Positions 8,692 to 31,986 of a DNA stretch of 32,768 nt are shown one piece after another (the stretch's first letter is position 1; each line of letters opens with the position of its first letter). Below the pieces are notes generated by a model. That model did no database searches and was not told the origin of the DNA. It was given only the letters and a program-made list of their open reading frames with translations. The DNA is taken from the NCBI GenBank assembly GCA_026993485.1, contig JALWSU010000007.1:1-32768 (forward strand). The letters run 5' to 3'. This stretch comes from Thiotrichaceae bacterium. Lineage in GTDB: Bacteria; Pseudomonadota; Gammaproteobacteria; Beggiatoales; Beggiatoaceae. The position numbers were made by a program, and so were the translations under genes.

Positions 8692-10998
8692 ATGTCTGAT
8701 GATTTAAGCGAAAGCGCACTTTATTACCATCGTTTTCCAAAACCAGGAAAATTAGCGATACAAGCCACTAAACCACTTGCTAATCAACGTGACTTAGCAC
8801 TAGCTTATTCTCCCGGAGTTGCCGCAGCTTGTCGGGAAATTGTCCGCGATTCTAGAGAAGTTTCCAATGTTACCTCACGCGGAAATTTAGTCGCTGTTAT
8901 TAGCAATGGCACTGCCGTACTGGGATTAGGTGCTATTGGCGCACTGGCTTCTAAACCAGTGATGGAAGGCAAAGCAGTACTTTTTAAAAAGTTTTCTGAC
9001 ATTGATGTTTTTGATATTGAAATCAACGAAAATGATCCAGAAAAACTGGTTGAAATTATTGCTGGATTAGAGCCGACATTTGGAGCTATTAATCTTGAAG
9101 ATATTAAATCTCCAGAATGTTTTTATGTTGAGCAAAAGCTGAAAGAACGCTTAAAAATTCCCGTATTTCATGATGATCAACACGGTACTGCTATTTGTGT
9201 TGCCGCAGCAGTTCTTAATGGAGTACGGCTAATAGGTAAAGAATTATCTGAAGTAAAATTGGTAACATCAGGTGCAGGTGCTGCCGCCATTGCTTGTTTA
9301 AATTTGCTCGTTGATTTAGGAATTAAGAAAGAGAATATCATTTTAACAGATTCCGTTGGGGTAGTGTACAAGGGACGCACTGAAAGGATGAGCAAGTATA
9401 AGGAAGCTTATGCGATTGAAACTGATAAACGTACCTTAGATGATGCGATTGAAGGAGCCGATATATTTCTTGGTTTATCTATTGGTGGTCTTCTCAAGCC
9501 AGAAATGGTTGCAAAAATGGTTGAACAACCCTTAATTCTTGCGCTGGCGAATCCGACACCAGAAATTATGCCAGAACAAGCCCGTGCAGTGCGCCCTAAA
9601 GCGATTATTGCCACTGGGCGTTCTGATTATCCTAACCAAGTTAATAACGTCTTGTGTTTTCCTTTTATATTTCGTGGTGCCTTAGATACGGGAGCAACAC
9701 AAATTAATCGAGAAATGCACCTAGCCTGTGTCCATGCTATTGCGGATTTAGTTACTAGCACCGAATCTAATATAGCCAGTGCGGGAGCTTCAGAAGTTTT
9801 AAATAAAGCTTATGCTGGCGAAGATTTAAATTTTGGACCTGAATATATTATTCCTAAACCTTTTGATCCGCGCCTAATTACTGTAATTCCGCCTGCTGTT
9901 GCTAAAGCTGCAATGGAGAGCGGAGTAGCCACACGCCCAATTAAAGATTTTAATACCTATCAACAAGGTTTATCGCAATACATGTTCCGTTCGGTTAATG
10001 TGATGAAAAGCCTTTTTAACCGAGCGCGAGAAAATCCACAACGCATTATTTATTCCGAAGGAGAAGATTGGCGGGTTTTGCGAGCAGTGCAAGTACTCTT
10101 AGATGAAGGCTGTATCCAGCCTATTATTGTTGGCAGACATGACGTGATCCGCCAACGTATTAAACAATTACGTTTGCATATTCGCCCAGATGTTGATTTT
10201 GAACTGATTGATCCGCTCAATTATGCTAAGCATAATGAATTAGCCCAAGAATATCATAAAATTATGGGCAGAGATGGGATTTGGCCCGCAGAAGCAGAAG
10301 TAGTGGTGCGTAGTAATACCACAGTGTTAGCTTCTTTACTATTGCGACGAGGAGATGCAGATGCTTTGGTTGCAGGGCCAGTGGGTTCATTCCATGAACA
10401 TTTACGCCATACTGTAAACATTATTGGCTTACGTGAAGGTGTTTCATACCCTGCAGCTATGGATCTATTGATTTTAGATAAAGGCACATATTTTATTGCA
10501 GATACCCATGTAAATTATGAACCAGATGCTCAAGAATTGGCGGAAATTACCGAAATGGCGGCTAATGAAGTCCAGCTTTTTGGCATTACCCCTAAAGTGG
10601 CTTTAGTTTCCCATTCCAACTTTGGGAGTACTGATAATTATTCAGTACTCAATCTCCGTGAAGCATTAAATTTGATTCACGCTAAAATGCCAGATTTAGA
10701 ATGTGATGGCGAAATGCGAACTGATGCGGCGTTAAGTGAAAAAATCCGCAACAGTCTTTATCCTGATTCTCATTTAAAAGGAGAAGCTAATTTACTAATA
10801 ATGCCTAATTTGGATGCAGCTAATATTGCATTTAATGGCATCAAGGCTCTAGCAAATGGCGTATCTGTTGGCCCAATATTGTTGGGAATGCGTAAATCTA
10901 CCCATATTTTAAGTCGCGTTGTTACTACTCGTGGGGTAGTAAATTTAAGTGCATTAGCCGCAGTTGATGCACAAGCATTGTCTGCGAATAAAAACTAA
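8692..10998 (+). CDS. maeB: NADP-dependent malic enzyme with phosphotransacetylase-like domain (MaeB)
   Basis: A 768-residue two-domain enzyme of the MaeB type. The N-terminal ~430 residues are malic enzyme: YSPGVAAAC with Tyr39, [12 protein letters not shown] with Lys94, metal ligands in [10 protein letters not shown] (Glu136, Asp137) and HDDQHGT (Asp161/162), and the dinucleotide loop SGAGAAA near residue 193. The C-terminal ~330 residues resemble phosphate acetyltransferase ([36 protein letters not shown]), which in MaeB proteins is regulatory and binds acetyl-CoA. It decarboxylates malate to pyruvate with formation of NADPH. The start ATG is preceded by AAAGGGTGA. It appears to be a single-gene unit; a MITE-like element follows the stop. 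Confidence 0.96.
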
Positions 10999-11007
10999 CA
11001 ACAATTC

Positions 11008-11159
11008 TAGGACTTACGCATTGACAAACGAATTTTTTTTATTTTCTCCTTGGAGTCCAAAGCTAAAGCTTTGAAATCCAAGTCAAGTAATTTATAAAAG
11101 TTAATAAGTTGTTTTTATTACAAAAAGAAACAATTTCTACTGTCAGTGCGTAAGTCCTA
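11008..11159. mobile_element. 152-bp MITE with TAGGACTTACGCATTGACA termini and AATTC target duplication
   Basis: The left end is TAGGACTTACGCATTGACA; the right end is its inverse with one mismatch. AATTC flanks both ends exactly (11003-11007 and 11160-11164), a 5-bp target site duplication. Inside lies a nested hairpin with the CCAAAGCTAAAGCTTTG core. It has no ORF. The right AATTC supplies the last base of the stop codon of the next minus-strand gene. Confidence 0.85.
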
Positions 11160-11163
11160 AATT

Positions 11164-11856
11164 CTATTTGATAGGTATTAAACGATCACCAAAAGGTGTG
11201 TGTATTAAACGCATACCTGGTGGTATATTTTCAGGTTTAATCTTGGTTTTCGGCGGCATCTTATAACCTTCTTGTGGCATGTTGTATCCTTTTGGCGTTG
11301 GAGGAGCTATAGGTCCATGATTTCTAGGTGTAACCGGCGGTGGTGCTGCTGCGGAGGGTGCTGAAACCAGTGGGGTAATTGCCTTACCACGTTTTAAGCT
11401 AACTGTTGCGGTTTTTTGATCAGCACTACATATAATGCCTTTTTTCTCATTGGATTTACGACAGGGGGCATTTTCAGGATATTCTATCAATATATCCCGT
11501 GCTTCTACCTTTAAGATTTTATAGCCTTCATAACCTTTAATTTCAGTAGGTTTATTATTGAAACGTAAGAGAAATTCTTTTTGATCTGGGCCCCTTAAAA
11601 TAACAGAACGTTTATTCCCGATCCTACTTGTACCAAGTAGGGTAAAATCTTTTTGTGGTAGCAATTCTTTTTTTGGTGGAGCTGGAATATTTTGCATGGG
11701 TGGTTTTGGTTGTTGAAAGTGGCTAGGTAATTGAGGTCTGACAAAAATATAAGGGGGTGGAGAGGGTGGTTTTCCACGATCTGGATTAAATAAATCAAAA
11801 GCAAAAATAGGATTGCTGATTAAAAATACTGCGAGTGTTGAAATTATTATCTTCAT
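11164..11856 (-). CDS. Secreted proline-rich protein of unknown function
   Basis: A 230-residue protein with a signal peptide (MKIIISTLAVFLISNPIFA, cleavage about residue 19). The N-terminal part of the mature protein and the C-terminal ~75 residues are Pro-rich (PPSPPPYIF, PKPPMQ, PPPVTPRN, PPTPKGYNMPQ). Between them is a ~65-residue globular block beginning FTLLGTSRIGNKRSVILRG and ending near ARDILIEYPENAPC; this looks like the small beta domains of PilP or GspC (HR-type) that bind secretin systems, but the match is by eye only. Two cysteines (APCR and IICS) could form a disulfide. It may relate to the type II secretion component gspK in the window; that is speculation. Confidence 0.65.
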   Translation of the reverse strand: MKIIISTLAVFLISNPIFAFDLFNPDRGKPPSPPPYIFVRPQLPSHFQQPKPPMQNIPAPPKKELLPQKDFTLLGTSRIGNKRSVILRGPDQKEFLLRFNNKPTEIKGYEGYKILKVEARDILIEYPENAPCRKSNEKKGIICSADQKTATVSLKRGKAITPLVSAPSAAAPPPVTPRNHGPIAPPTPKGYNMPQEGYKMPPKTKIKPENIPPGMRLIHTPFGDRLIPIK

Positions 11857-11885
11857 AATATCTACCTAACTACTAGCTATTTGTC

Positions 11886-12072
11886 TGATGTTACGTATCC
11901 TTGTTTACGCACTCTTGCTCCAACGCTGGAGCGCAATCTCTTATTTATACACAAGGGCAACCGATTGCCCCTACATGACATGAGAAGACGGTTTACTTAG
12001 TTACTTCGTTGGTAGAGGCAAGCCCTTGTGGTTGTCCTTTGGGGCTGGAGCGAAAGCGCGCGCGTAACATCA
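11886..12072. repeat. Inverted-repeat element bounded by TGATGTTACG / CGTAACATCA
   Basis: Perfect 10-bp inverted ends TGATGTTACG (11886-11895) and CGTAACATCA (12063-12072) bracket 187 bp. Inside are TTGCTCCAACGCTGGAGCG and paired tracts around CAAGGGCAACCGATTGCCCC and its rough complement. It shares pieces with the larger element at 19343-19946. No ORF. Confidence 0.6.
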
Positions 12073-12096
12073 ATTATTAAGGGAGATATCTTAATA

Positions 12097-12231
12097 TTAA
12101 TCTACTAAAAAATATACACCCAAGGCAATTAAAATAGATAAAACTAAGGCGATCCAATCTTCATGCCTATCGGTTTTAAAAAGACTCAATGCTGAGCCTC
12201 GAAGGAATTTTGGTTTTTCTTCTTCAGACAT
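12097..12231 (-). CDS. 44-residue single-helix membrane peptide downstream of the YeiH-type transporter
   Basis: ATG at 12231, preceded by AAAGGATTGAAAT, opens a 44-codon frame: MSEEEKPKFLRGSALSL, then FKTDRHEDWIALVL..., and one predicted transmembrane helix (WIALVLSILIALGVYFLV) ending in Asp before TAA. It begins 17 bp after the stop of the transporter gene at 12249 in the same direction, so it is likely co-transcribed. The charged N-terminus would face the cytoplasm. It may be a small accessory subunit of the transporter. No name can be assigned. Confidence 0.7.
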   Translation of the reverse strand: MSEEEKPKFLRGSALSLFKTDRHEDWIALVLSILIALGVYFLVD

Positions 12232-12248
12232 ATTTCAATCCTTTGTAA

Positions 12249-13805
12249 TTAAATGGTTTCACGTACAAATAATAAGACCACAATCAGGGATAAAACCGCT
12301 TTCAGTGTACCTACAACACCCCCAATCACTAATGGTTGCCCACCAGCCTGCTTAATAGAAGCAAAAGTAATTTGCATCCCTAAGCCTACTAAACCAAAGG
12401 CAAATAACCAAGTAATGAATTGACGGAATTTCTTGATTTTCTTGGCAGTATGGCGAACCGATTTATGCGCTTGTTTCAAGATATGATTAGCTTTCTGAGA
12501 CAAAATCTTGGCATTGACTAAACCACGCAAATTATCATCATCTTCAATAGACATCACTTTTTTATTTTCAATCAATCTATTTAAAGATTCCTTTTGTGCA
12601 GCTACTTGCACTTTATCTAGTTCAGTTTTCAATGTTGCTACAGCGTCTGCTGTTAATAATTTTTCAGCAGGAATATTATTATCAAAATATTTACCCTTAT
12701 AATGATGAGCTGGCGAAAATATACCTGTAGAAGATAGGGCAAACATCAAGAGAAACCCTAAGACAAAAATAGGGAATTTTTGAAACGCCACCTTAGCAAC
12801 ATTAACATCAGGAGCATCTTCTTCACGTTTTACATACCACACCGCTAACCAGACAACTATGATAGGCAAAACCAGTACGCGAGTAATATTAAAAATTTCC
12901 GCCACTTTTAAGGTTTCAATACCATCTGGCTGATAGGCAAGTGCTGCGCCAGCTACTTGAGCAGAGTTAAGGATACCGGTACCTGCCCAAGCTCCAAACT
13001 GGACATAACCTAAATCTAGGATATTACCAACTATGGGAAATAAAAACATGCAGCCAACGCCCCAAAGTAAAATCGTTCCAATTGTATAAGCTATTTCTAC
13101 CGATTTGGCTTGTACTACTGGGGCTGCGGCAACTGTTGCAGATACGCCACATACACCCATACCTGCTGAAAGCACACCACCCATAGAATTAGAAATCTTG
13201 CGCCGTGATGCCATCCATAAGACTAAACCTACTGAACCTAAGACGAAAAAACCCACCATTAAAATAGAAAGTGAACCTAATTGTTGTAATTCTGCGAGAC
13301 TATATAATGTCCCCAGTAAAACTACACCAGTTTTTAAACCTAAACGCGATAAACGCACTCCATTTTCTGCCCAAGCTGGTACTTTAAAAAAGTTTACAAC
13401 AATAATACCAGTTAAAATGCCCAACACAATATAATTGAGTCCAAGTACCTCGTGTAAATACTTAGCCCCCATAATGGGACCTAAAGATTTACTCCAAACA
13501 GCAACTAAAGGAGCAATAAACCAGCGAACTATCATTGCAATAAATAAAATAAAAGTAGCCCCAGCTACTGAGGACAAATAATAATCTAAATGCCCGATTT
13601 TATGCTCAGCAAACAAATGCCATAATCCTACAACAACAGCAATACCGCCAAAGAAATAAGATAAACTAACGATTTCTCCAAAATATTTTTGGATATGTAA
13701 ATATTTAATCACACTATCCATTAGGGAAAAATCTGCTAAGACACCCAAGCTAAGCATAATAATACCCATAATCAATAAAGCTGGGTGTTTGTGAGTATAA
13801 ATCAT
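12249..13805 (-). CDS. YeiH/UPF0324-type putative sulfate exporter with large extra C-terminal insert
   Basis: A polytopic membrane protein. The first ten-helix section has UPF0324/YeiH hallmarks: RLGLKTGVVLLG, GVLSAGMGVCGVSATVAAAPVV, IGTILLWGVGCMFLFPI and a conserved GAWAGTGILNSAQVAGA. E. coli YeiH is about 350 residues, whereas this protein is 518. The difference is mainly a soluble, Lys-rich helical segment (about residues 375-465; ADAVATLKTELDKVQVAAQ, IMEDDDNL-like acidic turn, KILSQKANHILKQAHKSV) between two helices. ATG 13805 is used; an upstream TTG at 13824-13826 overlaps the GGAGG site. The transported substrate is unproven. It is divergent from the DUF945-like gene. Confidence 0.8.
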   Translation of the reverse strand: MIYTHKHPALLIMGIIMLSLGVLADFSLMDSVIKYLHIQKYFGEIVSLSYFFGGIAVVVGLWHLFAEHKIGHLDYYLSSVAGATFILFIAMIVRWFIAPLVAVWSKSLGPIMGAKYLHEVLGLNYIVLGILTGIIVVNFFKVPAWAENGVRLSRLGLKTGVVLLGTLYSLAELQQLGSLSILMVGFFVLGSVGLVLWMASRRKISNSMGGVLSAGMGVCGVSATVAAAPVVQAKSVEIAYTIGTILLWGVGCMFLFPIVGNILDLGYVQFGAWAGTGILNSAQVAGAALAYQPDGIETLKVAEIFNITRVLVLPIIVVWLAVWYVKREEDAPDVNVAKVAFQKFPIFVLGFLLMFALSSTGIFSPAHHYKGKYFDNNIPAEKLLTADAVATLKTELDKVQVAAQKESLNRLIENKKVMSIEDDDNLRGLVNAKILSQKANHILKQAHKSVRHTAKKIKKFRQFITWLFAFGLVGLGMQITFASIKQAGGQPLVIGGVVGTLKAVLSLIVVLLFVRETI

Positions 13806-13951
13806 AACTAGTATTTTATCCTCCAAATTTAAAAAATTTTTATTTTAAACCTTAATAGTGATTTATCACAAGTAGCATCTACTAGACAATTACACAAATA
13901 ATCATTATTATACTTATCTCAATTTAATTTATATAAACAAAGATATATTTT

Positions 13952-15493
13952 ATGAATAAACTACTCAGATTCACAGCTACGAGTTTACTCGTTTGTGGAG
14001 TGAGCATAGGTTTAGCCTCACAAGCAGATACAATCGCAACAATACCAGTTGCCCTGATTCAAACTAGCTCACAAGCAAAAACCAATACCGATACACTCCG
14101 TTTCACTTTGCAACATCGTTTTAATGGAGGCGAACAACTTTCTAGCGAAACCATAGAAATTCCATTTGAGCAGCTTAATAAAAATCCTTTGGTTTTTTTG
14201 CAAACGCTCAAACAACACTTTTCTAAGCTTTTAGAAAAGCAAAGTTTACCTGTAGAAATTGATAGCAAACTTGATTTTGTCTTACCTGCGAAAGCTTTCG
14301 AAATTTTAGGGCAATTGCCAAGTATATCAATTAAAACCAACGTTAATAGCGACGGTAGTGGGAAAAGCGATTTAGTGTCTCCAGCCTATTCACGACAAGT
14401 GCCAGACAAATCTGGTCAGGGCAAGAATGCTTTTATAGATTGGAAAGGCTTGGATGCTCAATTTACGTTTGAAAATAAATTTGAGAATTTGAATGCCAAC
14501 ATCAATCTCAATGGGTTACTACTCAGAGAGTCTGCACTCCACCAACAATTCAGATTGTTTTTAGGAACTAGCCATTTAAGTGGTAATTTTGATAACCAGT
14601 TTATCCCTACTCAATTGAATCTGGATCTTAATTTGCCTAGTTTGCAAAGTCGTTACGACAAATATGCTTCTGATTTAAAAGATTTGTTATTCAAGTTCAA
14701 GTTTAAGAAAAACCCAAAAGGACTTGATCTTGGTTCTATGGATTTTCAAGTTGGCCAGTTGGAAATAGTTGAAAATCATTCAACAATTAGTACAATCAAT
14801 GGATTATCAGTTAGTGCTAGAGGTGAAGAACAAAATGGTTTAGTTAATTATACCTTGCACATTGAACTTGATAAATTGCAAGTACCAGAAAAACTCACTA
14901 TTGGAGAAGGTTCAAATAATGGATTTGTAGCAGAAATCTCATTTAGCAATTTAGATGAGAAAACCTTATTAGTTTTGCAAAACCAAGCACATGAATTGAA
15001 AGGCCAAAAAAATCCTCAAATGGCTACGATGCTGTTATCCCAAAAATTGATGGAAATGTCTTCTCAGTTTTTAGCAAGCTCTCCTCAAATTGGATTCAAA
15101 CTAAAAGTTAATTCGTCAAAGGGTAATTTTGATAGTAATATCGACATCAAACTCAGCGGAAAGAAAATCACTTCTTTAAATCTTCCAGCTTTAGCGTCAC
15201 TTTTGCAGGCAAATGCAAATATCATTGTCAGTAAAACCTTATTGGCACAATTACTGGAAGCTCAAATTCTCCGCAAAATGCAAAAAAGCCTTGCAGATGA
15301 AAATAAGACCTTGAATGATAAGGAATTAGCCTTTTTAACCAAACAAGCTAAACAAGCAAGTAAACAACAATTGCAAATGTTTGTTGGGATGAAATTATTA
15401 GTTGATAGTGGCGATGGTAATTATCATTTAGTTGCGAAGTTTAAAGATAAGAAACTGATTTTAAATGGTGCAGATATGCCGTTTAAATTCTGA
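13952..15493 (+). CDS. YdgA/DUF945-like secreted or periplasmic protein
   Basis: A 513-residue protein with an N-terminal hydrophobic signal or anchor (about residues 4-25; SLLVCGVSIGLASQADT). The body is rich in alternating beta-type sequence, and the C-terminal section ends DGNYHLVAKFKDKKLILNGADMPF, which matches the typical end of DUF945/YdgA proteins (a tyrosine-leucine strand, then a glycine-bounded KLxLNG turn). DUF945 proteins are found in many gammaproteobacteria, with no settled function. The ATG at 13952 has a weak ribosome site. It lies alone; the next gene is convergent with a palindromic repeat between them. Confidence 0.75.
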   Translation: MNKLLRFTATSLLVCGVSIGLASQADTIATIPVALIQTSSQAKTNTDTLRFTLQHRFNGGEQLSSETIEIPFEQLNKNPLVFLQTLKQHFSKLLEKQSLPVEIDSKLDFVLPAKAFEILGQLPSISIKTNVNSDGSGKSDLVSPAYSRQVPDKSGQGKNAFIDWKGLDAQFTFENKFENLNANINLNGLLLRESALHQQFRLFLGTSHLSGNFDNQFIPTQLNLDLNLPSLQSRYDKYASDLKDLLFKFKFKKNPKGLDLGSMDFQVGQLEIVENHSTISTINGLSVSARGEEQNGLVNYTLHIELDKLQVPEKLTIGEGSNNGFVAEISFSNLDEKTLLVLQNQAHELKGQKNPQMATMLLSQKLMEMSSQFLASSPQIGFKLKVNSSKGNFDSNIDIKLSGKKITSLNLPALASLLQANANIIVSKTLLAQLLEAQILRKMQKSLADENKTLNDKELAFLTKQAKQASKQQLQMFVGMKLLVDSGDGNYHLVAKFKDKKLILNGADMPFKF

Positions 15494-17851: not shown

Positions 17852-17883
17852 AATGTGGTGTTATTCTAATTTAAAAAAATAAT

Positions 17884-17943
17884 GGAGTCCAAAGCTTTAG
17901 CTTTAACTAATAATCATCGCCCAAAGCTAAAGCTTTGGACTCG
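17884..17943. repeat. Two facing copies of the CCAAAGCTTTAGCTTTGG palindrome
   Basis: GGAGTCCAAAGCTTTAGCTTT is followed after ~20 bp by CCAAAGCTAAAGCTTTGGACTC. The two together form an inverted repeat in the gap (17852-18032) between ispA and the oxidoreductase gene. The rest of the gap has no gene. Confidence 0.7.
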
Positions 17944-18032
17944 AATATGTAACTAAATTCATGATTCACTACATAAATGTTTTGAAAAAATTCAGTAAAG
18001 CCTTTAAATATTTAAAAATCAAGGTTCAAATA

Positions 18033-19335: not shown

Positions 19336-19342
19336 TCACTTA

Positions 19343-19946
19343 TGTTACGCATTCTCGTTCCCACGTTCCAGCGCAAGGCAACCACAAGGGATTGCCCCTA
19401 CATCATTGTTTGTAGGGGCAATCCCTTGTAGTTGCCCAGAGAGGCGTTTCAGGATGAAACGCAATGAAATCAATTATTTAAAAAATTATGTATAAAGGAG
19501 TGCGCTCCAGCATGGGAACGCATACTTCGACGCTCTAGCGTTGCTGCCAACAAACTTATGCTTTAGTACTTATGTACCTAACCAATTTTCGTATTGTCCA
19601 AAGCTTTCGCTTTGGAAACCAGCCAAAGCTAAAGCTTTGGACTCCAATATTTTCGTTTTCCTAGTTTCCAAGGCTTCACTGCCATGATATAGCGTTACCC
19701 GATTTAGTTAAGTACAAACCTGCCAGGTTTTTAAAACCTGGTAGGTTTAATCGCTGTATTTTATACAAACAGGTAGTGCTATATTAAGCTATGAAAAAGA
19801 GTACAGCGAATGTCAGACAACAAATAAAACCTTTGATAACTCGTCAGCTAACTGATTGTTTTTTATTCGTTGTCATAGATTCGTTGTACTCCATCCTTGA
19901 ATTTAATGGCAGTGAAGCGGGAGCGTGGGAACGAGAGTGCGTAACA
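19343..19946. mobile_element. 604-bp ORF-less element with 23-bp terminal inverted repeats and nested palindromes
   Basis: The ends match with one mismatch over 23 bp: 19343-19365 starts TGTTACGCATTCTCG and 19924-19946 ends CGAGAGTGCGTAACA. No transposase is encoded. Nested inside are a 26-bp-arm palindrome (19377-19402 with 19411-19436; GGCAACCACAAGGGATTGCC...), two CCAAAGCTTT palindromes (19596-19648), the AAACCTGCCAGGTTT repeat (19716-19748) and a ~30-bp imperfect inverted repeat (about 19798-19893; GAGTACAGCGAAT ... ATTCGTTGTACTC). I found no clear target duplication. It covers nearly the whole gap between the MIF-like gene and the MlaE-like gene. Confidence 0.65.
19716..19748. repeat. 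Palindromic AAACCTGCCAGGTTT repeat
   Basis: AAACCTGCCAGGTTT, TTAAAA, then CCTGGTAGGTTT. It is a member of the family at 2491, 5183 and 15502, nested in the 604-bp element. Confidence 0.75.
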
Positions 19947-19966
19947 TCAGTTAATCACATCAAATA

Positions 19967-21896: not shown

Positions 21897-22043
21897 TATA
21901 ACTTACGCATTGACAAACTATTTTTTTGTTTTTTTTCTTGGAGTCCAAAGCTTTAGCTTTGGACTCCAAGTAATTTATAATTTGTAACATTTTGTTTTTA
22001 TGAAAAAACATATAAAACATCAACTGTCAATGCGTAAGTCCTA
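21897..22043. mobile_element. Second copy of the 150-bp MITE (degenerate left end)
   Basis: ACTTACGCATTGACA (21901-21915) and its inverse TGTCAATGCGTAAGT (22025-22039) match the ends of the element at 11008. The left outer bases have decayed (TATA in place of TAGG) and no target duplication is visible. A perfect 34-bp palindrome with a CCAAAGCTTTAGCTTTGG core is at 21937-21970. This copy sits between mlaF and the rRNA promoters. Confidence 0.8.
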
Positions 22044-22116: not shown

Positions 22117-22144
22117 TTGACATCAAAAAGAAAAGCTATATAAT
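22117..22144 (+). promoter_or_regulatory. rRNA operon promoter P1
   Basis: Consensus sigma-70 hexamers TTGACA (22117-22122) and TATAAT (22139-22144) with a 16-bp spacer, followed by AGCGGCTCTC. A 95-bp shift gives P2, with almost the same sequence. Confidence 0.88.
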
Positions 22145-22211
22145 AGCGGCTCTCAATTTAAAGTTAAGTTTTTAACTGATTTGGGTATTATTAAATACTT
22201 AAAAATAAAGC

Positions 22212-22239
22212 TTGACATCAGAAAGAAAAGCTATATAAT
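22212..22239 (+). promoter_or_regulatory. rRNA operon promoter P2
   Basis: TTGACA (22212-22217), 16-bp spacer, TATAAT (22234-22239), then AGCGGCTCTC, the same discriminator as P1. P1 and P2 look like a tandem duplication of about 95 bp. Confidence 0.88.
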
Positions 22240-22334
22240 AGCGGCTCTCAACTGAAGTTAAGTTAAGAAGAATCATCTTTATCTTTGCATTTTTGCACTT
22301 TATTAAATTTAAGTGTTAAATATTAAAATAACGC

Positions 22335-22362
22335 TTGACATTAATAAATAGCATGTTATAAT
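22335..22362 (+). promoter_or_regulatory. rRNA operon promoter P3
   Basis: TTGACA (22335-22340), 16-bp spacer, TATAAT (22357-22362), then GCGCCGAG. The spacer sequence differs from P1/P2, but the hexamers and spacing are perfect. Confidence 0.85.
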
Positions 22363-22438: not shown

Positions 22439-22849
22439 GGTGCTTGCGTCGATAGATTAACAATAATTTATTTATAATAATTTCGATGCAAATACTAACT
22501 CAGATTTTTGTTTGAGTAAAAACTTTGCGTCAGCTAGATTTAACAAGATTTAAACTGAAGAGTTTGATCATGGCTCAGATTGAACGCTGGCGGCATGCTT
22601 AATACATGCAAGTCGAACGGTAACATGCCCTTCGGGGTGATGACGAGTGGCGAACGGGTGAGTAATACATAGGAATCTACCTAGTAGTGGGGGACAACTC
22701 GGGGAAACTCGGGCTAATACCGCATATGTCCTACGGGATAAAGTGGGGGACCTTCGGGCCTCACGCTATTAGATGAGCCTATGTCAGATTAGCTAGTTGG
22801 TAGGGTAAAGGCCTACCAAGGCTACGATCTGTAGCTGGTTTGAGAGGAC

Positions 22850-22903
<54 letters not shown>

Positions 22904-23308
22904 AGGGAATATTGGACAATGGGCGCAAGCCTGATCCAGCAATGCCGCGTGTGTGAAGAAGGCCTGCGGGTTGTAAAGCACTTTTTTTTGGGAAGAAAAG
23001 CTTAGAGTTAATACCTCTAAGTGTTGACGTTACCAATAGAATAAGCACCGGCTAACTCTGTGCCAGCAGCCGCGGTAATACAGAGGGTGCGAGCGTTAAT
23101 CGGAATTACTGGGCGTAAAGCGTGCGTAGGCGGTTAAATAAGTCGGATGTGAAAGCCCAAGGCTTAACCTTGGAATTGCATTCGATACTGTTTAGCTAGA
23201 GTACAGTAGAGGAAAGCGGAATTCCTAGTGTAGCGGTGAAATGCGTAGATATTAGGAAGAACACCAGTGGCGAAGGCGGCTTTCTGGACTGATACTGACG
23301 CTGAGGTA

Positions 23309-24267
<959 letters not shown>

Positions 24268-24391
24268 ACCCTGGTAGTCCACGCCCTAAACGATGAGAAC
24301 TAGATGTTGGAGGAAATTGATCCTTTAGTGTCGCAGCTAACGCAATAAGTTCTCCGCCTGGGGAGTACGGCCGCAAGGTTAAAACTCAAAT

Positions 24392-24461
<70 letters not shown>

Positions 24462-24518
24462 GGCCTTGACATCCTCGGAACTTTGCTGAAAAGCGAAGGT
24501 GCCTTCGGGAACCGAGAG

Positions 24519-24553
<35 letters not shown>

Positions 24554-25372
24554 AATTGACTTGCGACCTATAGGAGTGATCCTATAGAAAAAATCAGCTT
24601 ATAACGGTGAAACCCTAACAGAACTTGATGAGGGCAATACCGTGGGAAGTTTAGGAAGTGTCTATAACTTTGAAACAAGAGCAATTAGTAGTTGGAACTC
24701 TGCTAGGAGATGGTTATCTTTATCGAAATGGACGGTTACAAATTGAGCATCAAGAAAAATTTAAGTCATACGTTTTTTGGAAGTATGAGATGCTTCATTC
24801 CATAGTTTCAGGCGTACCAAAAAGGTGTGTTAGGTTCGACAAAAGAACCAATAAAGAGTATGTTTCTTGGCGTTTTTATACTAAAACTGTTTTTCAGAAT
24901 TATCGTAGATATTTTTATGATGAGAATGGAAAGAAGATAGTTCCAAAAAATATTTTTCAGTTGCTTGTTTCTCCACTTGCATTAGCAGTGTGGTTTATGG
25001 ACGATGGTGGTAAAGGAGCAAACACTCCAAAAGGATTGATTATAAGTGCAGCAGGATTTACTTCAATAGAACAAATTTTATTGAAAAAATGTTTGGAAAA
25101 TAATTTTAGATTAATTGTCAATATACACAAAAATGGACAATTTTATATTCCAGCATCATCTTATAACTGCTTTTACAATTTAGTTAATCCTCATATTGTA
25201 CCCTCAATGAGGTACAAACTTCCTATAACCCCGTAACGACTGAGGCGTAATGCCGAGATAACAATTGATTGACGTTTTAAATTTATGATTGTTATAACAC
25301 GCTGACTCTTACTTACCATCAAGTAAGATGAAGATATAGTCTAAACCCATAAGAAATTTTGGGGGGAATTTG
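24554..25372 (+). mobile_element. Group I intron in 16S after position 1078 (S1078), with LAGLIDADG gene
   Basis: The 5' exon ends CUCGUGUCGU and the intron ends ...AATTTG before GAGATGTTGGG. P1 pairs GUCGU with GCGAC (24563-24567), with U·G at the splice site. P2 is CUAUAGGA-GUGA-UCCUAUAG (24568-24587). P7 uses CGACU / GAUAUAGUC (S strand near 25332-25341). P9 has a GAAA loop (one mismatch). The core is very similar to the 23S L2500 intron, including CTTATAACGGTGAAACC and CCGTAACGACTGAGGC. The endonuclease gene is in the P6 loop. Confidence 0.9.
24658..25236 (+). CDS. LAGLIDADG homing endonuclease of the S1078 intron
   Basis: A 192-residue protein with two motifs: LVVGTLLGDGYL (Asp18) and LAVWFMDDGGKG (Asp115/116), LAGLIDADG_2 type. 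The first usable codon is GTG at 24658 after AGGAAG; no ATG is near, so the true start is uncertain. It is read entirely within the L6 loop of its intron. The C-terminus (MRYKLPITP) has a partial homologue in the remnant in the L2500 intron. It presumably cleaves 16S lacking this intron. Confidence 0.85.
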   Translation: MSITLKQEQLVVGTLLGDGYLYRNGRLQIEHQEKFKSYVFWKYEMLHSIVSGVPKRCVRFDKRTNKEYVSWRFYTKTVFQNYRRYFYDENGKKIVPKNIFQLLVSPLALAVWFMDDGGKGANTPKGLIISAAGFTSIEQILLKKCLENNFRLIVNIHKNGQFYIPASSYNCFYNLVNPHIVPSMRYKLPITP

Positions 25373-25410
<38 letters not shown>

Positions 25411-25597
25411 ATCCCTAGTTGCCAGCACGTAATGGTGGGAACTCTAGAGAGACTGCTAGTGACAAACTGGAGGAAGGTGGGGATGACGTCAAGTCATCAT
25501 GGCCCTTACGGCCAGGGCTACACACGTGCTACAATGGGTAGTACAGAGGGTTGCAAACCCGCGAGGGGGAGCTAATCTCACAAAACTACTCGTAGTC

Positions 25598-25650
<53 letters not shown>

Positions 25651-25691
25651 AATCAGCATGTCGCGGTGAATACGTTCCCGGGCCTTGTACA

Positions 25692-26542
25692 AAATAAATG
25701 CGCCTGGCAGTTTATTAGACTAGGTGGTGAAAATCCATCTATTCGTTTTCGGACAACGAATATAGGGAAAGATAGGACACGTTCCGTAAGGAAGTGTCTG
25801 AAGGATCTGGAACAAATGGTAGTCTTAGCAAAAAAAAGGCGTTGTGACTCATGTGTGTACCATGAGGAAGCAACAAACCGTAAAGCCTGCTAGGAATGTC
25901 AGAAATAGCCTAATAAATGACCCAGGGATATCCTGTCGTTAAGATAACCAATCATGCGACGGCAGGAAGTCAGCTGATTCATAGTAGCCGATACGTCGGC
26001 AAAGGATGAAACCTATGAGAGAAATCTCACCTGAAAATATTTCAGGATTTGTAGTAGGTGAAGGATGTTTTTATGTAGAAAGTGGTAAAGATCCTAAGTA
26101 TAAATTAGGGTATAGAGTTAGAGCTGCTTTTTGCATTGAACTTAGAGAGGATGATAGAGAAATACTTGAGGCCATTCAAGAAACATTAGGATGTGGCAAT
26201 ATTTACCAACTCAATTTTGGTAGATATAAAAATTATTCTAAAAAAAATTGGAAACCTCATGTAAAATATAGAGTAAGTAATCAAAATGAGATTATTCACA
26301 AAGTCATTCCTTTCTTTGAAAAGTATCCACTTTTTGGTAAAAAGAAAAAATCATTTGATGTATTTACCAAAATTGTGAAGAAAATTGAGTTCAAAGAACA
26401 TTTAACACCCTATGGTTTAGAAGAAACCAAGAAATTGGTATCTGAACTCAAATCTCTGAATAAAAAAGGCATGTAGGACTCGCTGGATGCGCTAGACACG
26501 CTTGTCCAGTGGGAACGCGACAATGGTTATAATGATCGCAAT
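25692..26542 (+). mobile_element. Group II-type intron in 16S after position 1396, encoding LAGLIDADG instead of reverse transcriptase
   Basis: Exons join as TTGTACA + CACCGCCC, so no terminal G is possible; the intron ends in AAT (group II AY). A conserved-like AUGCGCC start occurs only after six extra nt (AAATAA). Domain I is closed by CCUGG/CCAGG (25703, 25922) and UUUAUUAG/CUAAUAAA (25711, 25910). EBS1 is in the loop UGUGUAC (25854-25860) of CUCAUG/CAUGAG and pairs with exon UGUACA; AAGGC (25836-25840) fits exon GCCUU as EBS2. A domain II hairpin, GCCGA-UACG-UCGGC (domain III, 25987-26000), the ORF in domain IV, a 35-nt domain V-like hairpin (26479-26513) and a domain VI hairpin follow. 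Confidence 0.8.
26015..26476 (+). CDS. LAGLIDADG protein of the 16S-1396 group II-type intron
   Basis: A 153-residue single-motif protein from ATG 26015, chosen because AAAGG is 9 nt upstream; the ATG at 26006 abuts that site. The motif is ENISGFVVGEGCFYV (Glu16 as catalytic acid), LAGLIDADG_1 type, followed by basic helices (KKKKSFDVFTK, KKGM end). The single motif suggests it acts as a homodimer, or that it is a half-size maturase. Group II introns normally encode reverse transcriptases; a family with LAGLIDADG ORFs is known from fungal mitochondrial rRNA genes. It lies in domain IV, just past the domain III hairpin. Confidence 0.85.
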   Translation: MREISPENISGFVVGEGCFYVESGKDPKYKLGYRVRAAFCIELREDDREILEAIQETLGCGNIYQLNFGRYKNYSKKNWKPHVKYRVSNQNEIIHKVIPFFEKYPLFGKKKKSFDVFTKIVKKIEFKEHLTPYGLEETKKLVSELKSLNKKGM

Positions 26543-26641
26543 CACCGCCCGTCACACCATGGGAGTGGGCTGTACCAGAAGTAGGTAGTCTAACCGCAAG
26601 GAGGACGCTTACCACGGTATGGTTCATGACTGGGGTGAAGT

Positions 26642-27204
26642 TTAACGGCTTCCTATGCGAGTAATTGCATAGTAAAATCCAACTATATCGGTGAACCCCT
26701 AACTGTAGTATAAGCAGTGGGCAATGCCGAGGGAAGTTGGGCTAGAAGATAGAAAGAAATGTCTCAAACTAAGCTTGGTAATCAAATTAAACAGTTAGTA
26801 TTAAACACTAAAACCACAAAATCAAAACCTGTTTTTTTGACAAACAAGAAATTTTGTACTAAAATGTTACAATCTTGAACTTATAGATTAGCTTCAAAAT
26901 CTTTTAAGTGACAGACATTACCGAGAACCAAGGTAATAACAAAGGTGATAGATGGTTTATCACCTTAGGGTGCTTGCCCCTTAAACATAACCAAAGCCTA
27001 TTTTGTGGTTTTGGCGTTTTAAAGTAAGAGGTTGTATTTTTTGAAGAAAAGTTATTCTATCTTTGAAAAGCTTGTTAAACCATATATTTTGTCATGTATG
27101 GCACGCAAGTTGCCTTAACCCCGTAGAGGCCATACGTTGGCTCCTTTGAAAAAAGGATGAAGACATGGTCCGACACCCTTAGTAATAAGGGCTAAAACAG
27201 TAAG
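26642..27204 (+). ncRNA. Group I intron in 16S after position 1495 (S1495), no endonuclease
   Basis: The 5' exon ends GGUGAAGU and the intron ends ...CAGTAAG before CGTAACAAGG. P1 is GAAGU with GCUUC (U·G at the splice site). P2 is CUAUGCGA-GUAA-UUGCAUAG (26653-26672). P7 differs from its relatives by compensatory changes: GGCCAU (in CCCCGTAGAGGCCAT) pairs with AUGGUC (in GACATGGTCC). P9 is CCCUUA-GUAA-UAAGGG (27176-27191). About 360 nt between the P4 3' strand and P7 contain only a 39-codon ORF (26759-26878) unlike LAGLIDADG, so an endonuclease gene may have been lost or replaced. Confidence 0.9.
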
Positions 27205-27251
<47 letters not shown>

Positions 27252-27281
27252 AAAGAAAATAATCGTTCGACGTTGAGTACT

Positions 27282-27299
27282 CACACAAATTACTTGATC
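27282..27299 (+). other. 3' strand of the 16S processing stem
   Basis: CACACAAATTACTTGATC is the exact complement of 22421-22438, and closes the RNase III stem around pre-16S. Confidence 0.85.
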
Positions 27300-27325
27300 A
27301 CACACTATATCAATCATGGTGTTAT

Positions 27326-27402
<77 letters not shown>

Positions 27403-27408
27403 AATTTG

Positions 27409-27484
27409 GGGGCTATAGCTCAGCTGGGAGAGCGCCTGCTTTGCACGCAGGAGGTCAACGGTTCGATCCCGTTTAGCTCCACCA
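27409..27484 (+). tRNA. alaT: tRNA-Ala (TGC)
   Basis: A 76-nt cloverleaf with acceptor GGGGCTA/TAGCTCC, anticodon TGC in CTTTGCACG, T-arm AACGGTTCGATCCCGTT and encoded CCA. It follows tRNA-Ile by 6 bp and is nearly identical to E. coli tRNA-Ala. Confidence 0.98.
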
Positions 27485-27571
27485 AGAAATGTTTAGTCCT
27501 AAATATTAAATATTAAGTATTTATATTTAGTATTTAGGACTAAATGTTTAATTTAGTGATTTATAGTTTTA

Positions 27572-27585
27572 TTGTTCTTTAAAAA
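27572..27585 (+). promoter_or_regulatory. Spacer boxA-like site before 23S
   Basis: TTGTTCTTTAAAAA resembles boxA, and lies between the tRNAs and 23S at the position of the spacer boxA in E. coli. Confidence 0.55.
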
Positions 27586-28756
27586 TTTAGGAAATTGATG
27601 AATTACAACGTCAATTTGGGTATATTGCATTCGTAATGCACATAAAATTTAGTTAGAAAAACTTATAATTCCAGAATTTTTGGGGTTATAGGGTTAAGTG
27701 AATAAGCGCACACGGTGGATGCCTTGGCGATAACAGGCGATGAAGGACGTAGTAGCTTGCGATAAGCTTCGGTGAACCAGCAAACAGGTTATGACCCGGA
27801 GATTTCCGAATGGGGGAACCCACCTCTTATGAGGTATCTGCATTTGAATACATAGAATGTAGAGGCGAACCTAGGGAACTGAAACATCTAAGTACCTAGA
27901 GGAAAAGAAATCAACCGAGATTCCGTTAGTAGCGGCGAGCGAACGCGGAACAGCCAAGTTACATCAAGCTTAATAGGTTTAGCAGAATGGTTTTGGAAAA
28001 GCCAACTATATAGGGTGATAGTCCCGTATGCGAAAAACATATTAAGTGGGTAACTAAAAAGTAGGGCGGGACACGTGATATCCTGTCTGAAGAATCTCCT
28101 TCGGGAGAGTGGGGGGACCATCCTCCAAGGCTAAATACTCGTTATCGACCGATAGTGAACCAGTACCGTGAGGGAAAGGCGAAAAGAACCCCTGTTAGGG
28201 GAGTGAAATAGAACCTGAAACCGTGTGCGTACAAGCAGTGGGAGCATAGTTTAGCTATGTGACTGCGTACCTTTTGTATAATGGGTCAGCGACTTACTTT
28301 CAATGGCAAGCTTAACCGAATAGGGGAGGCGTAGGGAAACCGAGTCTGAATAGGGCGATTTGGAAGTCGTTGGGAGTAGACCCGAAACCGAGCGATCTAT
28401 CCATGGTCAGGGTGAAGATGGGGTAATTCCTATTGGAGGCCCGAACCCACTTATGTTGAAAAATGAGGGGATGAACTGTGGATAGGAGTGAAAGGCTAAT
28501 CAAGCTCGGAGATAGCTGGTTCTCCTCGAAAGCTATTTAGGTAGCGCCTCGTGTCTCACTCTCGGGGGTAGAGCACTGTTACGGCTAGGGGGTCATCCCG
28601 ACTTACCAAACCGTTGCAAACTCCGAATACCGAGAAGTGTAATCACGGGAGACACACGGCGGGTGCTAAGGTCCGTCGTGGAAAGGGAAACAGCCCAGAC
28701 CGCCAGCTAAGGTCCCAAAATTATAGCTCAGTGGGAAACGATGTGGGAAGGTATAA

Positions 28757-28818
<62 letters not shown>

Positions 28819-29528
28819 GAATCGGCCCGCGCGGAAGATTTAACGGGGCTTAAGCTATATACCGAAGCTGCGGATATTCTTCTGGAATATGGTAGAGGAG
28901 CGTTCTGTAAGTCTGTGAAGGTGTATTGTGAGATATGCTCGAGATATCAGAAGTGCGAATGCTGACATGAGTAGCGATAATGAGTGTGAAAGACATTCAC
29001 GCCGGAAGTCCAAGGTTTCCTCGCGCAACGTTAATCGGCGCAGGGTGAGTCGGCTCCTAAGGCGAGGCAGAAATGCGTAGTCGATGGAAAACAGGTTAAT
29101 ATTCCTGTACTTTATGTTATTGCGAAGGGGGGACGGAGAAGGCTAGGCCAGCAGAAGATTGGTTGTTTCTGTTCAAGGTTGTAGGCAGAGAACTTAGGTA
29201 AATCCGGGTTCTTAATGTCGAGAACTGATTGTCGAGGTCTTATTAATTTGAGACCGGAGTGGTTGATGCCATGCTTCCAAGAAAAGCCTCTAAGCCTCAG
29301 ATAACATAAAACCGTACCCAAAACCGACACAGGTGGACAGGGTGAGAATCCCAAGGCGCTTGAGAGAACTCGGGTGAAGGAACTAGGCAAAATAGCACCG
29401 TAACTTCGGGAGAAGGTGTGCCCTCATTATGTGAATGGACTTGCTCCAGGAGCAAAAGAGGGTTGCAGTGACCAGGTGGCTGCGACTGTTTATTAAAAAC
29501 ATAGCACTCTGCAAACACGAAAGTGGAC

Positions 29529-29563
<35 letters not shown>

Positions 29564-29596
29564 TAATTGATGATGTTAGGGTAACCGAAGCATTTG

Positions 29597-30424
<828 letters not shown>

Positions 30425-30438
30425 AACGGTCCTAAGGT

Positions 30439-30718
30439 TAATTTAACGCTAGCCTTAGTAAAATTAGGCTATATGCTGGAAAGTTCGGTGTATCCTTCAG
30501 TACTCGTATTTATTGGTAATACAGTAATAATCTGAAAGGTGCGAATAATCAGCAGGAAAGGCTCATATATTTATTTTTGAGAATCCTCAGAGACTACACG
30601 CCTAACACTACATACAATAGTAGTGAAGATATAGTCCGAACTCTATGGCGACATAGAGAAATCAACAGAAATGATTGATTCCATTCAAAAGTAATAAATT
30701 GAATGAGTAACAAAATTG
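30439..30718 (+). ncRNA. Group I intron in 23S after position 1931 (L1931), ORF-less, 280 nt
   Basis: The 5' exon ends CUAAGGU and the intron ends AAATTG before AGCGAAATTCC. P1 is seven pairs, CUAAGGU with GCCUUAG (30452-30458). P7 pairs GACUA (CCTCAGAGACTACACGCC, about 30584-30601) with UAGUC (GATATAGTCC, 30628-30637). P9 is CUCUAUG-GCGA-CAUAGAG (30641-30658), co-varying with the L1917 intron while keeping GCGA. It is the smallest intron here and nearly a minimal version of the L1917 core. Both introns were probably copies of one ancestor. Confidence 0.93.
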
Positions 30719-30765
<47 letters not shown>

Positions 30766-31049
30766 CGATGGCCACGCTGTCTCCACCCGAGACTCAGCGA
30801 AATTGAATTTGCTGTTAAGATGCAGTATACCCGCGGCTAGACGGAAAGACCCCGTGAACCTTTACTATAGCTTTACACTGGACTTTGAACCTGTTTGTGT
30901 AGGATAGGTGGGAGGCTTTGAAGCGATGACGCTAGTTATCGTGGAGCCATCCTTGAAATACCACCCTAACATGTTTGAGGTTCTAACTTCGACCCGTTAT
31001 CCGGGTTAAGGACAGTGTATGGTGGGTAGTTTGACTGGGGCGGTCTCCT

Positions 31050-31974
31050 CAACAAAGTGGGGCTCTATAATGGTAACGTTATAGATGAATTCGGCTATAT
31101 GCTGGAAGGTCCGTTCCCTATAAATCATTGTACCGTTACTCAGTGGTTTAAAAGGGATGTAGTATCTAGTACTATCAAATTAAATTTGATGAAAATGTGT
31201 CTAGTGCGGAAAATCAGCAGGGAAGTCTCATTATAAAATAATGATGACCCCTCAACGACTACACGCCGAACATCCTAATTTAAGGATGGTGATATAGTCT
31301 GAACTATCAGGCGACTGATAGCCGATTTAATCGGAGTTTGGGTGATAATGAGAAGTCGAGAAATAGAAGAATATAAACAGAGATTAAAGCTTTCCCGAAA
31401 ACAACGAGAGGTTTTGGTTGGAATCCTGTTAGGTGATGCTTGTTTAGAAACTTTAAACAATGGACGTACCTATAGGCTGAAAATCGAGCAAAGCGAGAAA
31501 CATCGTGAATATCTTTATCATCTTTACGATTTGTTTAAGGAGTGGGTGTTGACTCCACCTCGAAGTAGAGGGCGTGAAAATTTAAGTTTGGCTTTTAGTA
31601 CAATTAGTCATGCAAGCTTTCGTTTTTATGCTCATCAGTTTTATGGGGATAGTGGCAAAAAAATACCTAAGTTAATTCATCGTTGGTTGACACCTGTTAA
31701 TTTAGCTTATTGGTATATGGATGATGGTTCCATAAAATCAAAAGAGTCAAAAGGTGTTATTTTAAATACACACTCTTTCTCGCGTTCAGAGGTGAATCGA
31801 TTAGCACAAGTCTTAGGAACTGTTTTTGGATTAGAAGCTAAAGAGCGCAAGCAAAAAGATGGCTATCAAGTTTATATTTCAGGTAACTCGTATGAACGAT
31901 TTAAAGAAATCGTTAAACCTCATATTTTAAAATCAATGTGGTATAAAATACCACCACCAAGACGAACACAATTG
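31050..31974 (+). mobile_element. Group I intron in 23S after position 2262 (L2262), with LAGLIDADG gene
   Basis: The 5' exon ends GGUCUCCU; the intron ends CAATTG before CCAAAAGAGTAACGG. P1 is weak (UCCU with GGGG). P2 is an 8-bp stem with a GUAA loop (31065-31084). P7 pairs CGACUA (CCCTCAACGACTACACGCC, about 31250-31268) with UAUAGUC (31291-31300). P9 is CUAUCAG-GCGA-CUGAUAG (31304-31321). The endonuclease gene lies after P9, and its frame continues 12 nt past the 3' splice site. Confidence 0.88.
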
Positions 31975-31986
31975 CCAAAAGAGTAA
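31342..31986 (+). CDS. LAGLIDADG homing endonuclease of the L2262 intron, reading into the 23S exon
   Basis: A 214-residue protein with two motifs: [12 protein letters not shown] (Asp32) and [12 protein letters not shown] (Asp127/128), LAGLIDADG_2 type. GGAG upstream fits GTG 31342 (or ATG 31348, two codons later). Its last codons CCA AAA GAG TAA are read from the 3' rRNA exon; the stop TAA is 23S nucleotides. A spliced-out intron therefore lacks a stop codon, so full-length protein would come only from unspliced precursor. The gene is intact. Confidence 0.9.

What the first reader, a model, noticed from the sequence alone, without database searches (positions are those of the whole stretch)
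11003..11164. MITE with exact AATTC target duplication
The 152-bp element has 19-bp ends (one mismatch) and a 5-bp duplication, so it moved recently. A second, older copy is at 21897-22043. Both carry a nested CCAAAGCTTT palindrome, so elements are inserted in, or built from, each other. The parent transposase is not in the window.
Basis: seen in the sequence. Interest (0 to 1): 0.5.

Follow-up and report, generated by a model that had tools for sequence, protein, structure and literature searches.

The report
Old mini-transposon carrying a repeated hairpin
The 152-base piece is one of a large family of short, gene-less jumping DNA elements in a giant-sulfur-bacterium genome; they share their ends with transposase-bearing elements found in a related sulfur bacterium and in cyanobacteria, and nearly all of the copies examined carry in their middle a second, independently scattered hairpin repeat.

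Summary
In detail: a 152-bp MITE (11008-11159), 19-bp ends with one mismatch, AATTC duplication. The genome holds 178 matches to the 19-bp end (at most 1 mismatch; reversed control 0). Of 50 own-genome elements examined, 27 have an exact 5-bp duplication (chance about 0.2 in a 38-element test). The likely parent type is an IS701-like element (NCBIfam NF049921) with the same ends and 5-bp duplications; intact transposase genes occur in a Thiomargarita-type relative and a cyanobacterium, but searches of the window's own draft genome found only fragments at two places, one split by a MITE and one followed by a MITE. "Moved recently" is not supported: the window copy is 89% identical to the family consensus (median 92%) and its nearest examined relative is 92%. 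The nested palindrome is a separate REP-like repeat (535 arm matches); of 70 copies classified, 26 lie beside a MITE end, 12 beside the ends of another inverted-repeat family, and 28 beside neither. It is of the same type as the dispersed hairpin reported in the dsrA-intron MITE of Thiomargarita nelsonii Bud S10. The parts are of known kinds; the nesting, and the spread of these ends across two phyla, are the interesting points.

The parts
11003..11007 (.). left copy of the 5-bp target duplication AATTC
   Evidence: duplications of exactly 5 bp in the family
11008..11026 (+). left terminal inverted repeat TAGGACTTACGCATTGACA
   Evidence: same ends on full-length IS701-like elements
11008..11159 (.). 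MITE, copy 1, 152 bp, no reading frame of 80 aa or more
11049..11082 (.). nested REP-like hairpin (one arm partly decayed) in the MITE
   Evidence: RNA fold of 11003-11164 z -9.6
11141..11159 (-). right terminal inverted repeat, one mismatch to the left one
11160..11164 (.). right copy of the duplication AATTC; its last base falls in the stop codon of the reverse-strand frame 11164-11856
21897..22043 (.). MITE, copy 2, 147 bp, worn left end, no duplication left; lies upstream of the rRNA promoter matches
21937..21970 (.). nested hairpin of copy 2: 15-bp perfect stem, 4-base loop
1896..1927 (.). copy of the same hairpin outside the two MITEs, intergenic
17882..17945 (.). copy of the same hairpin (double form) outside the two MITEs, intergenic
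19594..19647 (.). copy of the same hairpin (double form) inside a 611-bp compound insertion (19340-19950) that is absent from the same-genus genome G001

Best explanation
The feature is a non-autonomous transposon (MITE) derived from, or moved in trans by, an IS701-like DDE insertion sequence whose transposase recognises the 19-bp ends TAGGACTTACGCAYTGACA and duplicates 5 bp of target. The family spread in an ancestor of this Beggiatoaceae genome and then largely stopped: only transposase fragments were found in the assembly. The palindrome in its middle is a different repeat, a REP-like hairpin scattered through the genome, which entered the MITE early in this lineage and was copied with it; the same hairpin type also rides in other MITE-like elements. 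Shown: ends, duplication, copy number, same ends and duplication length on full-length elements, a separate distribution of the hairpin. Inferred: trans-mobilisation, order of events, loss of the parent, how the hairpin itself moves.
For: Copies and duplications. Full-length elements: six with both ends (1043-1591 bp). Five (L092, L188, L152, L180, L184) have ends TAGGA[C/G]TTACGCATTGAC; the sixth, L190, has the variant TAGGAGTTACGCAGTTG. 4 of the 6 have exact 5-bp duplications (L092 TACTA, L188 AATCA, L184 ATATC, L190 TAGGT; L152 and L180 do not). L184's interior is masked; the frames of L152 and L180 are broken. L092's protein hits NF049921 at 381 bits, cut-off 250, and L188 and L190 lie on NF049921 matches over the cut-off. 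Own-genome transposase: one 37-39-aa N-terminal fragment at C328 (55-68% identity) with what reads as a worn left end upstream and a MITE about 25 bp after it, and two short fragments at C291 (aa 130-168 and 239-282) with a MITE of duplication TACCC between them. Hairpin as a separate repeat: 535 arms in the own genome at most 1 mismatch off. The first 100 listed exact arms form 71 hairpins: MITE ends on both sides 17, on one side 9; TTGTCCGGAAATAA ends on both sides 6, on one side 6; one loose match 4; none 28; no flanking sequence 1. Reversed end motifs as control: at most 3 of 142 sides. Among relatives, G009, G012 and G013 have the MITE ends but no exact hairpin arm, and G018 has 478 exact hairpin arms but 8 MITE ends. 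48 of 50 MITEs hold the hairpin; the two that do not (both 116 bp) share one junction.
Against: No intact transposase was seen in the own genome, so movement in trans is inferred from other genomes. The genome is a 508-contig draft (93.8% complete), and identical copies or an intact IS could be hidden in contig gaps; some contigs end in MITE ends. The two hairpin-free elements could equally be precise deletions between short CTC repeats, so that the hairpin was inserted rather than always present is not proven. Only about 22 bp of each MITE end match the IS ends, so descent by internal deletion is not shown. The MITE at C328 has no duplication.
Confidence: 0.87

Rival explanations
1. A recently active MITE still being moved; an intact parent is hidden in the assembly gaps.
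For: Exact duplications in 27 of 50 elements; a few pairs of copies are 96-97% identical in the arms; some contigs start or end in a MITE end (e.g. C90:6-16, C80:7888-7898 of 7920, C222:5658-5791 of 5791).
Against: Median identity to the consensus is 92% and the nearest-neighbour median 92.5%; the window copy has 89.4% and no examined relative above 92.0%. The share of intact duplications (0.54) corresponds to about 6% change per site since insertion (my arithmetic), of the same order as the 8% median divergence, so most divergence looks later than insertion.
Confidence: 0.1
2. The central palindrome is an intrinsic part of the MITE, and the solitary palindromes are its worn remains.
For: 48 of 50 MITEs hold it; of 70 hairpins classified, 26 lie beside at least one MITE end, so the link is strong; QMITE2 of Coxiella is said to wear down to REP-like pieces (PMC10969869, passage).
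Against: The hairpin is the centre of inverted-repeat elements with unrelated ends (TTGTCCGGAAATAA, 6 of 70 with both ends), lies in a 611-bp insertion with an 8-bp duplication, a hairpin of the same design lies in the differently ended dsrA-intron MITE of G018, and the distributions among relatives differ.
Confidence: 0.08
3. The elements have been kept because the host uses them, for example as bidirectional transcription terminators or RNA stability elements between convergent genes.
For: Very stable fold as RNA (z -9.6 and -9.8); copy 1 lies between two convergent frames; the hairpin of copy 2 scores as terminator-like; the five window copies of the hairpin found at most 2 mismatches per arm off are all outside frames of the main genes.
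Against: Copy 1 has no terminator-like site by the same scan; the arms are worn about as expected from the loss of duplications; intergenic position is also what selection against gene damage gives.
Confidence: 0.2

Closest known systems
dsrA group I intron MITE and dispersed P9 hairpin of Candidatus Thiomargarita nelsonii Bud S10 (PMC4853749; passages and sections 20 and 22 read)
   Same: A dispersed hairpin found mostly alone and predominantly intergenic but also inside a larger inverted-repeat element with a 5-bp direct repeat. In G018 (probably this or a very near species: dsrA split, hairpin of exactly 51 nt, TATAG repeats) the hairpin TAGGAGTCCAAGATTTATCTTGG matches ours in design and in the GGAGTCCAA core.
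   Different: That MITE has other ends, TATAG repeats, and sits in an intron; the paper found no parent IS. Ours has IS701-like ends.
hupL MITE of the same genome (PMC4853749)
   Same: MITE with 19-bp inverted repeats and hits on 260 of 439 contigs.
   Different: 10-bp direct repeats and a proposed link to a PD-(D/E)XK transposase-like gene; sequence not compared (supplement not available).
IS701-like insertion sequences (NCBIfam NF049921)
   Same: Same ends in L092 and L188, and 5-bp duplications.
   Different: Carry a DDE transposase gene; 1043-1278 bp in the three with an unbroken gene (L190 with variant ends).
REPINs and REP/RAYT systems (PMC3116915, passages read)
   Same: Intergenic, inverted hairpin doublets, hundreds per genome.
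   Different: No RAYT linked to this hairpin was found.
Small dispersed repeats embedded in minitransposons of Nostoc (Elhai et al. 2008; recalled, not read)
   Same: Tiny repeats nested in MITEs.
   Different: 21-27 nt (recalled), other sequences.
Nezha MITE of cyanobacteria (Zhou et al. 2008; seen only as a reference in PMC10969869)
   Same: Cyanobacterial MITE.
   Different: Ends could not be compared.

Membership tests
MITE | short (<500 bp), no transposase gene | tested here: met
   152 bp, no frame of 80 aa or more
MITE | terminal inverted repeats and target duplication | tested here: met
   19 bp with 1 mismatch, AATTC; 27 of 50 own-genome elements with an exact 5-bp duplication
MITE | many copies | tested here: met
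   178 end matches in the own genome; 79 BLAST pieces, some of them the hairpin only
MITE | ends shared with an autonomous element | tested here: met
   in other genomes only
MITE | moved in trans by that transposase | not testable with these tools
   needs an assay
IS701 family as defined in PMC2266710 (passages read) | IS701-type transposase in the parent | tested here: met
   L092: NF049921 381 bits; the older model NF033540 only 91 bits, below its cut-off of 150
IS701 family as defined in PMC2266710 (passages read) | 4-bp direct repeats | tested here: not met
   5 bp in 4 of 6 full-length elements, 5 bp in 21 of 38 MITEs and no 4-bp repeat in any of the 38
IS701 family as defined in PMC2266710 (passages read) | size 1400-1550 bp | tested here: not met
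   1141 (L092), 1278 (L188) and 1043 bp (L190) for those with an unbroken gene
IS701 family as defined in PMC2266710 (passages read) | ends ---YACT-Y--YR | tested here: inconclusive
   TAGGACTTACGCA keeps ACT and the last two positions but not two of the Y; the paper says the consensus does not cover the whole family
REP/RAYT (REPIN), for the nested hairpin | multicopy intergenic palindromes, often in inverted pairs | tested here: met
   intergenic position checked only for the five window copies
REP/RAYT (REPIN), for the nested hairpin | RAYT gene flanked by the same palindrome | tested here: not met
   two Y1_Tnp matches in the own genome, no hairpin in their loci L254 and L255

The most novel reading that the evidence does not exclude
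The GGAGTCC hairpin is an independently mobile, REP-like passenger of large sulfur bacteria that has entered the centres of several unrelated MITE families (IS701-like ends, TTGTCCGGAAATAA ends, the Bud S10 dsrA-intron MITE) and uses their transposition to spread, so that MITEs serve as vehicles for a smaller repeat; the variable centres of the cyanobacterial MITEs with the same ends (other hairpins in 7 of 16 aligned) would be independent cases of the same thing.
Probability: 0.3. Interest if true: 0.6.

Novelty: new member of a known kind. Interest (0 to 1): 0.36.

Why it matters
It names a likely parent type for an abundant MITE and shows that the same 19-bp ends, with 5-bp duplications, occur in Beggiatoaceae and in filamentous cyanobacteria, two groups already suspected of exchanging DNA (PMC4679880, passages read). 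It also offers a concrete, countable case of repeats nested inside repeats, which may help to explain why genomes of large sulfur bacteria assemble into hundreds of contigs.

Tried and rejected
Rejected: a chance inverted repeat. Rejected: that the long end-to-end distances in several own-genome loci are full IS copies; a tblastn of the transposase over all loci then held hit none of the own-genome loci. Looked for and not found: an intact parent gene in the own genome by two protein queries and one profile. Empty site for the two window MITEs: the same-genus genome G001 (59% complete) gave no match to window 10300-15349 except the hairpin, and beyond window 21738 only repeat-sized matches. 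RAYT as mover of the hairpin: no link. Whether the central hairpins of the cyanobacterial MITEs are dispersed repeats there: a weak test only, 4 GTAGGGGC hairpins in the loci scanned, 2 of them outside a MITE as judged by the script; undecided. Flanking inverted repeats of hairpins by local alignment hardly beat re-paired flanks at high scores (score 18 or more: 21 of 112 against a control share of 0.155), probably because many flanks are related MITE arms; I used end motifs instead. My first count by motifs (4 of 51 hairpins with MITE ends on both sides) was biased low, since I had passed over listed places beside known MITE ends when fetching stretches and since duplicates had been credited to MITE loci; I fetched the three missing places and recounted all of the first 100 listed arms, which is the count used here. 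Literature strings: GGACTTACGCA gave one unrelated paper; six strings of the end and the hairpin gave two unrelated papers. In those two searches I found no printed description of this exact element; supplements were not available.

Limits: of up to about 90 elements implied by 178 ends, 50 own-genome elements were aligned. They come from places listed, which are contig-ordered or best-first, not random; elements longer than 300 bp or with ends more than 2 mismatches off were left out. One search counted 38 of them (those with 15 bp of flank in the loci then held). One search covers contigs C2 to C166 only.

Full report
What is there. The element occupies 11008-11159 (152 bp) between AATTC at 11003-11007 and AATTC at 11160-11164, with 19-bp ends differing at one position. 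It sits between the stop of a malic-enzyme-like gene (8692-10998, + strand; named from the look of the translation, not from a search) and the stop of a reverse-strand frame (11164-11856; no Pfam hit). The second copy, 21897-22043, is worn at its left end and lies about 75 bp upstream of the first of three perfect TTGACA-16-TATAAT promoter matches that precede the rRNA operon.

Which organism. The window is one whole contig of a 3.23-Mb, 508-contig genome. So the family is that of the large sulfur bacteria (Beggiatoaceae; inference).

Family size and duplications. The own genome has 142 exact GGACTTACGCA (reversed control 1), 178 matches to TAGGACTTACGCAYTGACA at most 1 mismatch off (control 0) and 79 BLAST pieces to the element, some of them the hairpin only. 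In 38 elements with both ends, 21 have an exact 5-bp duplication, none has one of 3, 4, 6 or 7 bp, and re-pairing the flanks gives a mean of 0.24; shifting the boundary by 1-3 bases gives 0, or 1 in one case. In the larger set it is 27 of 50.

Age. Over 114 arm columns outside the hairpin, the median identity to the consensus is 92.0%, the median pairwise identity 85.8%, the median nearest neighbour 92.5%; window copy 1 is at 89.4% (nearest 92.0%) and copy 2 at 83.3% (nearest 86.7%). A few pairs reach 96-97%. The retained duplications (0.54 of copies, ten positions each) correspond to about 6% change per site (my arithmetic). The window element is therefore not recent by this measure; an exact duplication is expected in roughly a third of copies as diverged as it is (0.894 to the tenth power). 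Caveat: identical repeats are lost at contig ends in a draft assembly.

Parent. The 19-bp end occurs in 25 of 57 genomes searched: 24 of 36 of the same family (the own genome included) and 1 of 21 of other families of the class. Full-length elements with an unbroken gene: Anabaenopsis elenkinii L092, 1141 bp, transposase at 381 bits to NF049921; G018 L188, 1278 bp, 55% identical protein; G012 L190, 1043 bp, with variant ends TAGGAGTTACGCAGTTG. Of six full-length elements listed, 4 have exact 5-bp duplications. By the published definition IS701 makes 4-bp repeats and is 1400-1550 bp long (PMC2266710, passages), so the parent is IS701-like by transposase but fails two defining features; I do not file it as classical IS701. 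Outside the own genome, 38 of 50 short elements found in the loci had exact 5-bp duplications. In 35 genomes, 6 have an NF049921 match over the cut-off; the own genome is not one of them.

The parent in the own genome is wreckage. C328 keeps 37-39 N-terminal residues behind what reads as a worn left end and is followed about 25 bp later by a MITE that has no duplication. C291 keeps two fragments, between which a MITE lies with duplication TACCC.

The nested hairpin is something else. TTGGAGTCCAAAGC has 274 + 261 matches in the own genome at most 1 mismatch off (control 0). Copies are either a tight 32-34-bp hairpin or a longer double form, often with ACGAAGTAAGCG-type inserts. The first 100 listed exact arms (contigs C2 to C166) form 71 hairpins; one lay too near a contig end to be read. 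Of the other 70, 17 have MITE ends on both sides and 9 on one side, 6 have TTGTCCGGAAATAA ends on both sides and 6 on one side, 4 have one loose match, and 28 have none; reversed end motifs gave at most 3 matches in 142 sides. So the hairpin is strongly linked to this MITE but is more often found away from it. Exact arms occur in 6 of 35 genomes, all in the same family, with a pattern unlike that of the MITE ends. 48 of 50 own MITEs hold it; two 116-bp copies lack it at the same junction TTTTCTC|CAAGT, which fits either an original empty form or deletion between CTC repeats.

Link to print. In G018 dsrA is split at about residue 193 by an insert that holds TAGGAGTCCAAGATTTATCTTGG-GACAG-CCAAGATAAATCTTGGACTCCTA, 51 nt, between TATAG repeats. 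This matches the account of Thiomargarita nelsonii Bud S10: a group I intron in dsrA with a 51-bp P9 hairpin, parts of which are found on more than 100 contigs, and a MITE with TATAG repeats (PMC4853749, section 20). The window's hairpin has the same design and core, in a MITE with other ends. The own genome's dsrA is split at the same place by about 630 bp.

How it works (inferred). An IS701-like transposase binds the 19-bp ends, cuts out or copies the element and joins it to a 5-bp staggered cut; the MITE was carried in trans until the transposase genes decayed. The hairpin was copied as a passenger. How the hairpin moves by itself is not known; the two Y1 transposase matches in the genome are not flanked by it. 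A terminator or RNA role is possible (RNA folds z -9.6 and -9.8), but copy 1 does not score as a terminator while copy 2 does.

Related nesting elsewhere. In 16 aligned cyanobacterial MITEs with the same ends (those similar to L137), 7 carry an additional central hairpin of two other sequences and 9 do not. That these are dispersed repeats in their genomes was not shown.

Noticed in passing
window 19340-19950: A 611-bp block of stacked repeats absent from the same-genus genome G001, whose contig C239 runs straight from the match ending at window 19342 to the match starting at 19951 with 11 bp overlap; 8-bp duplication TTAATCAC, outer inverted repeats near TTACGCATTCTCGTTCCCACG, and inside it the GGAGTCC hairpin and an inverted-repeat element starting TATAGCGTTACCCG around a CCTGCCAGG hairpin.
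   Followed up: partly
L239:2091-2180, L260:2597-2697, L283, L284, L291, L297 (own genome): A second MITE-like family with ends TTGTCCGGAAATAA that carries the same central hairpin. Its parent was not sought.
   Followed up: partly
L304 (own genome, C259:1600-2150): A MITE whose central hairpin itself holds the TATAGCGTTACCCG element with its own CCTGCCAGG hairpin: nesting of several levels.
   Followed up: no
window 22552-31045: rRNA operon split by several insertions: two group I introns in the 23S gene region (30398-30658, 31035-31321) and LAGLIDADG endonuclease frames (23474-24217, 24658-25236, 26006-26476, 29772-30305, and 31342-31986 just beyond).
   Followed up: no
L260 (own genome, C333:156-2009): dsrA is split by about 630 bp at the same place as in the Thiomargarita-type genome G018; the split parts lie in one open frame of 649 codons.
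   Followed up: partly
window 22117-22362: Three perfect TTGACA-16-TATAAT promoter matches upstream of the 16S gene; the first two lie in a near-identical repeated stretch.
   Followed up: no
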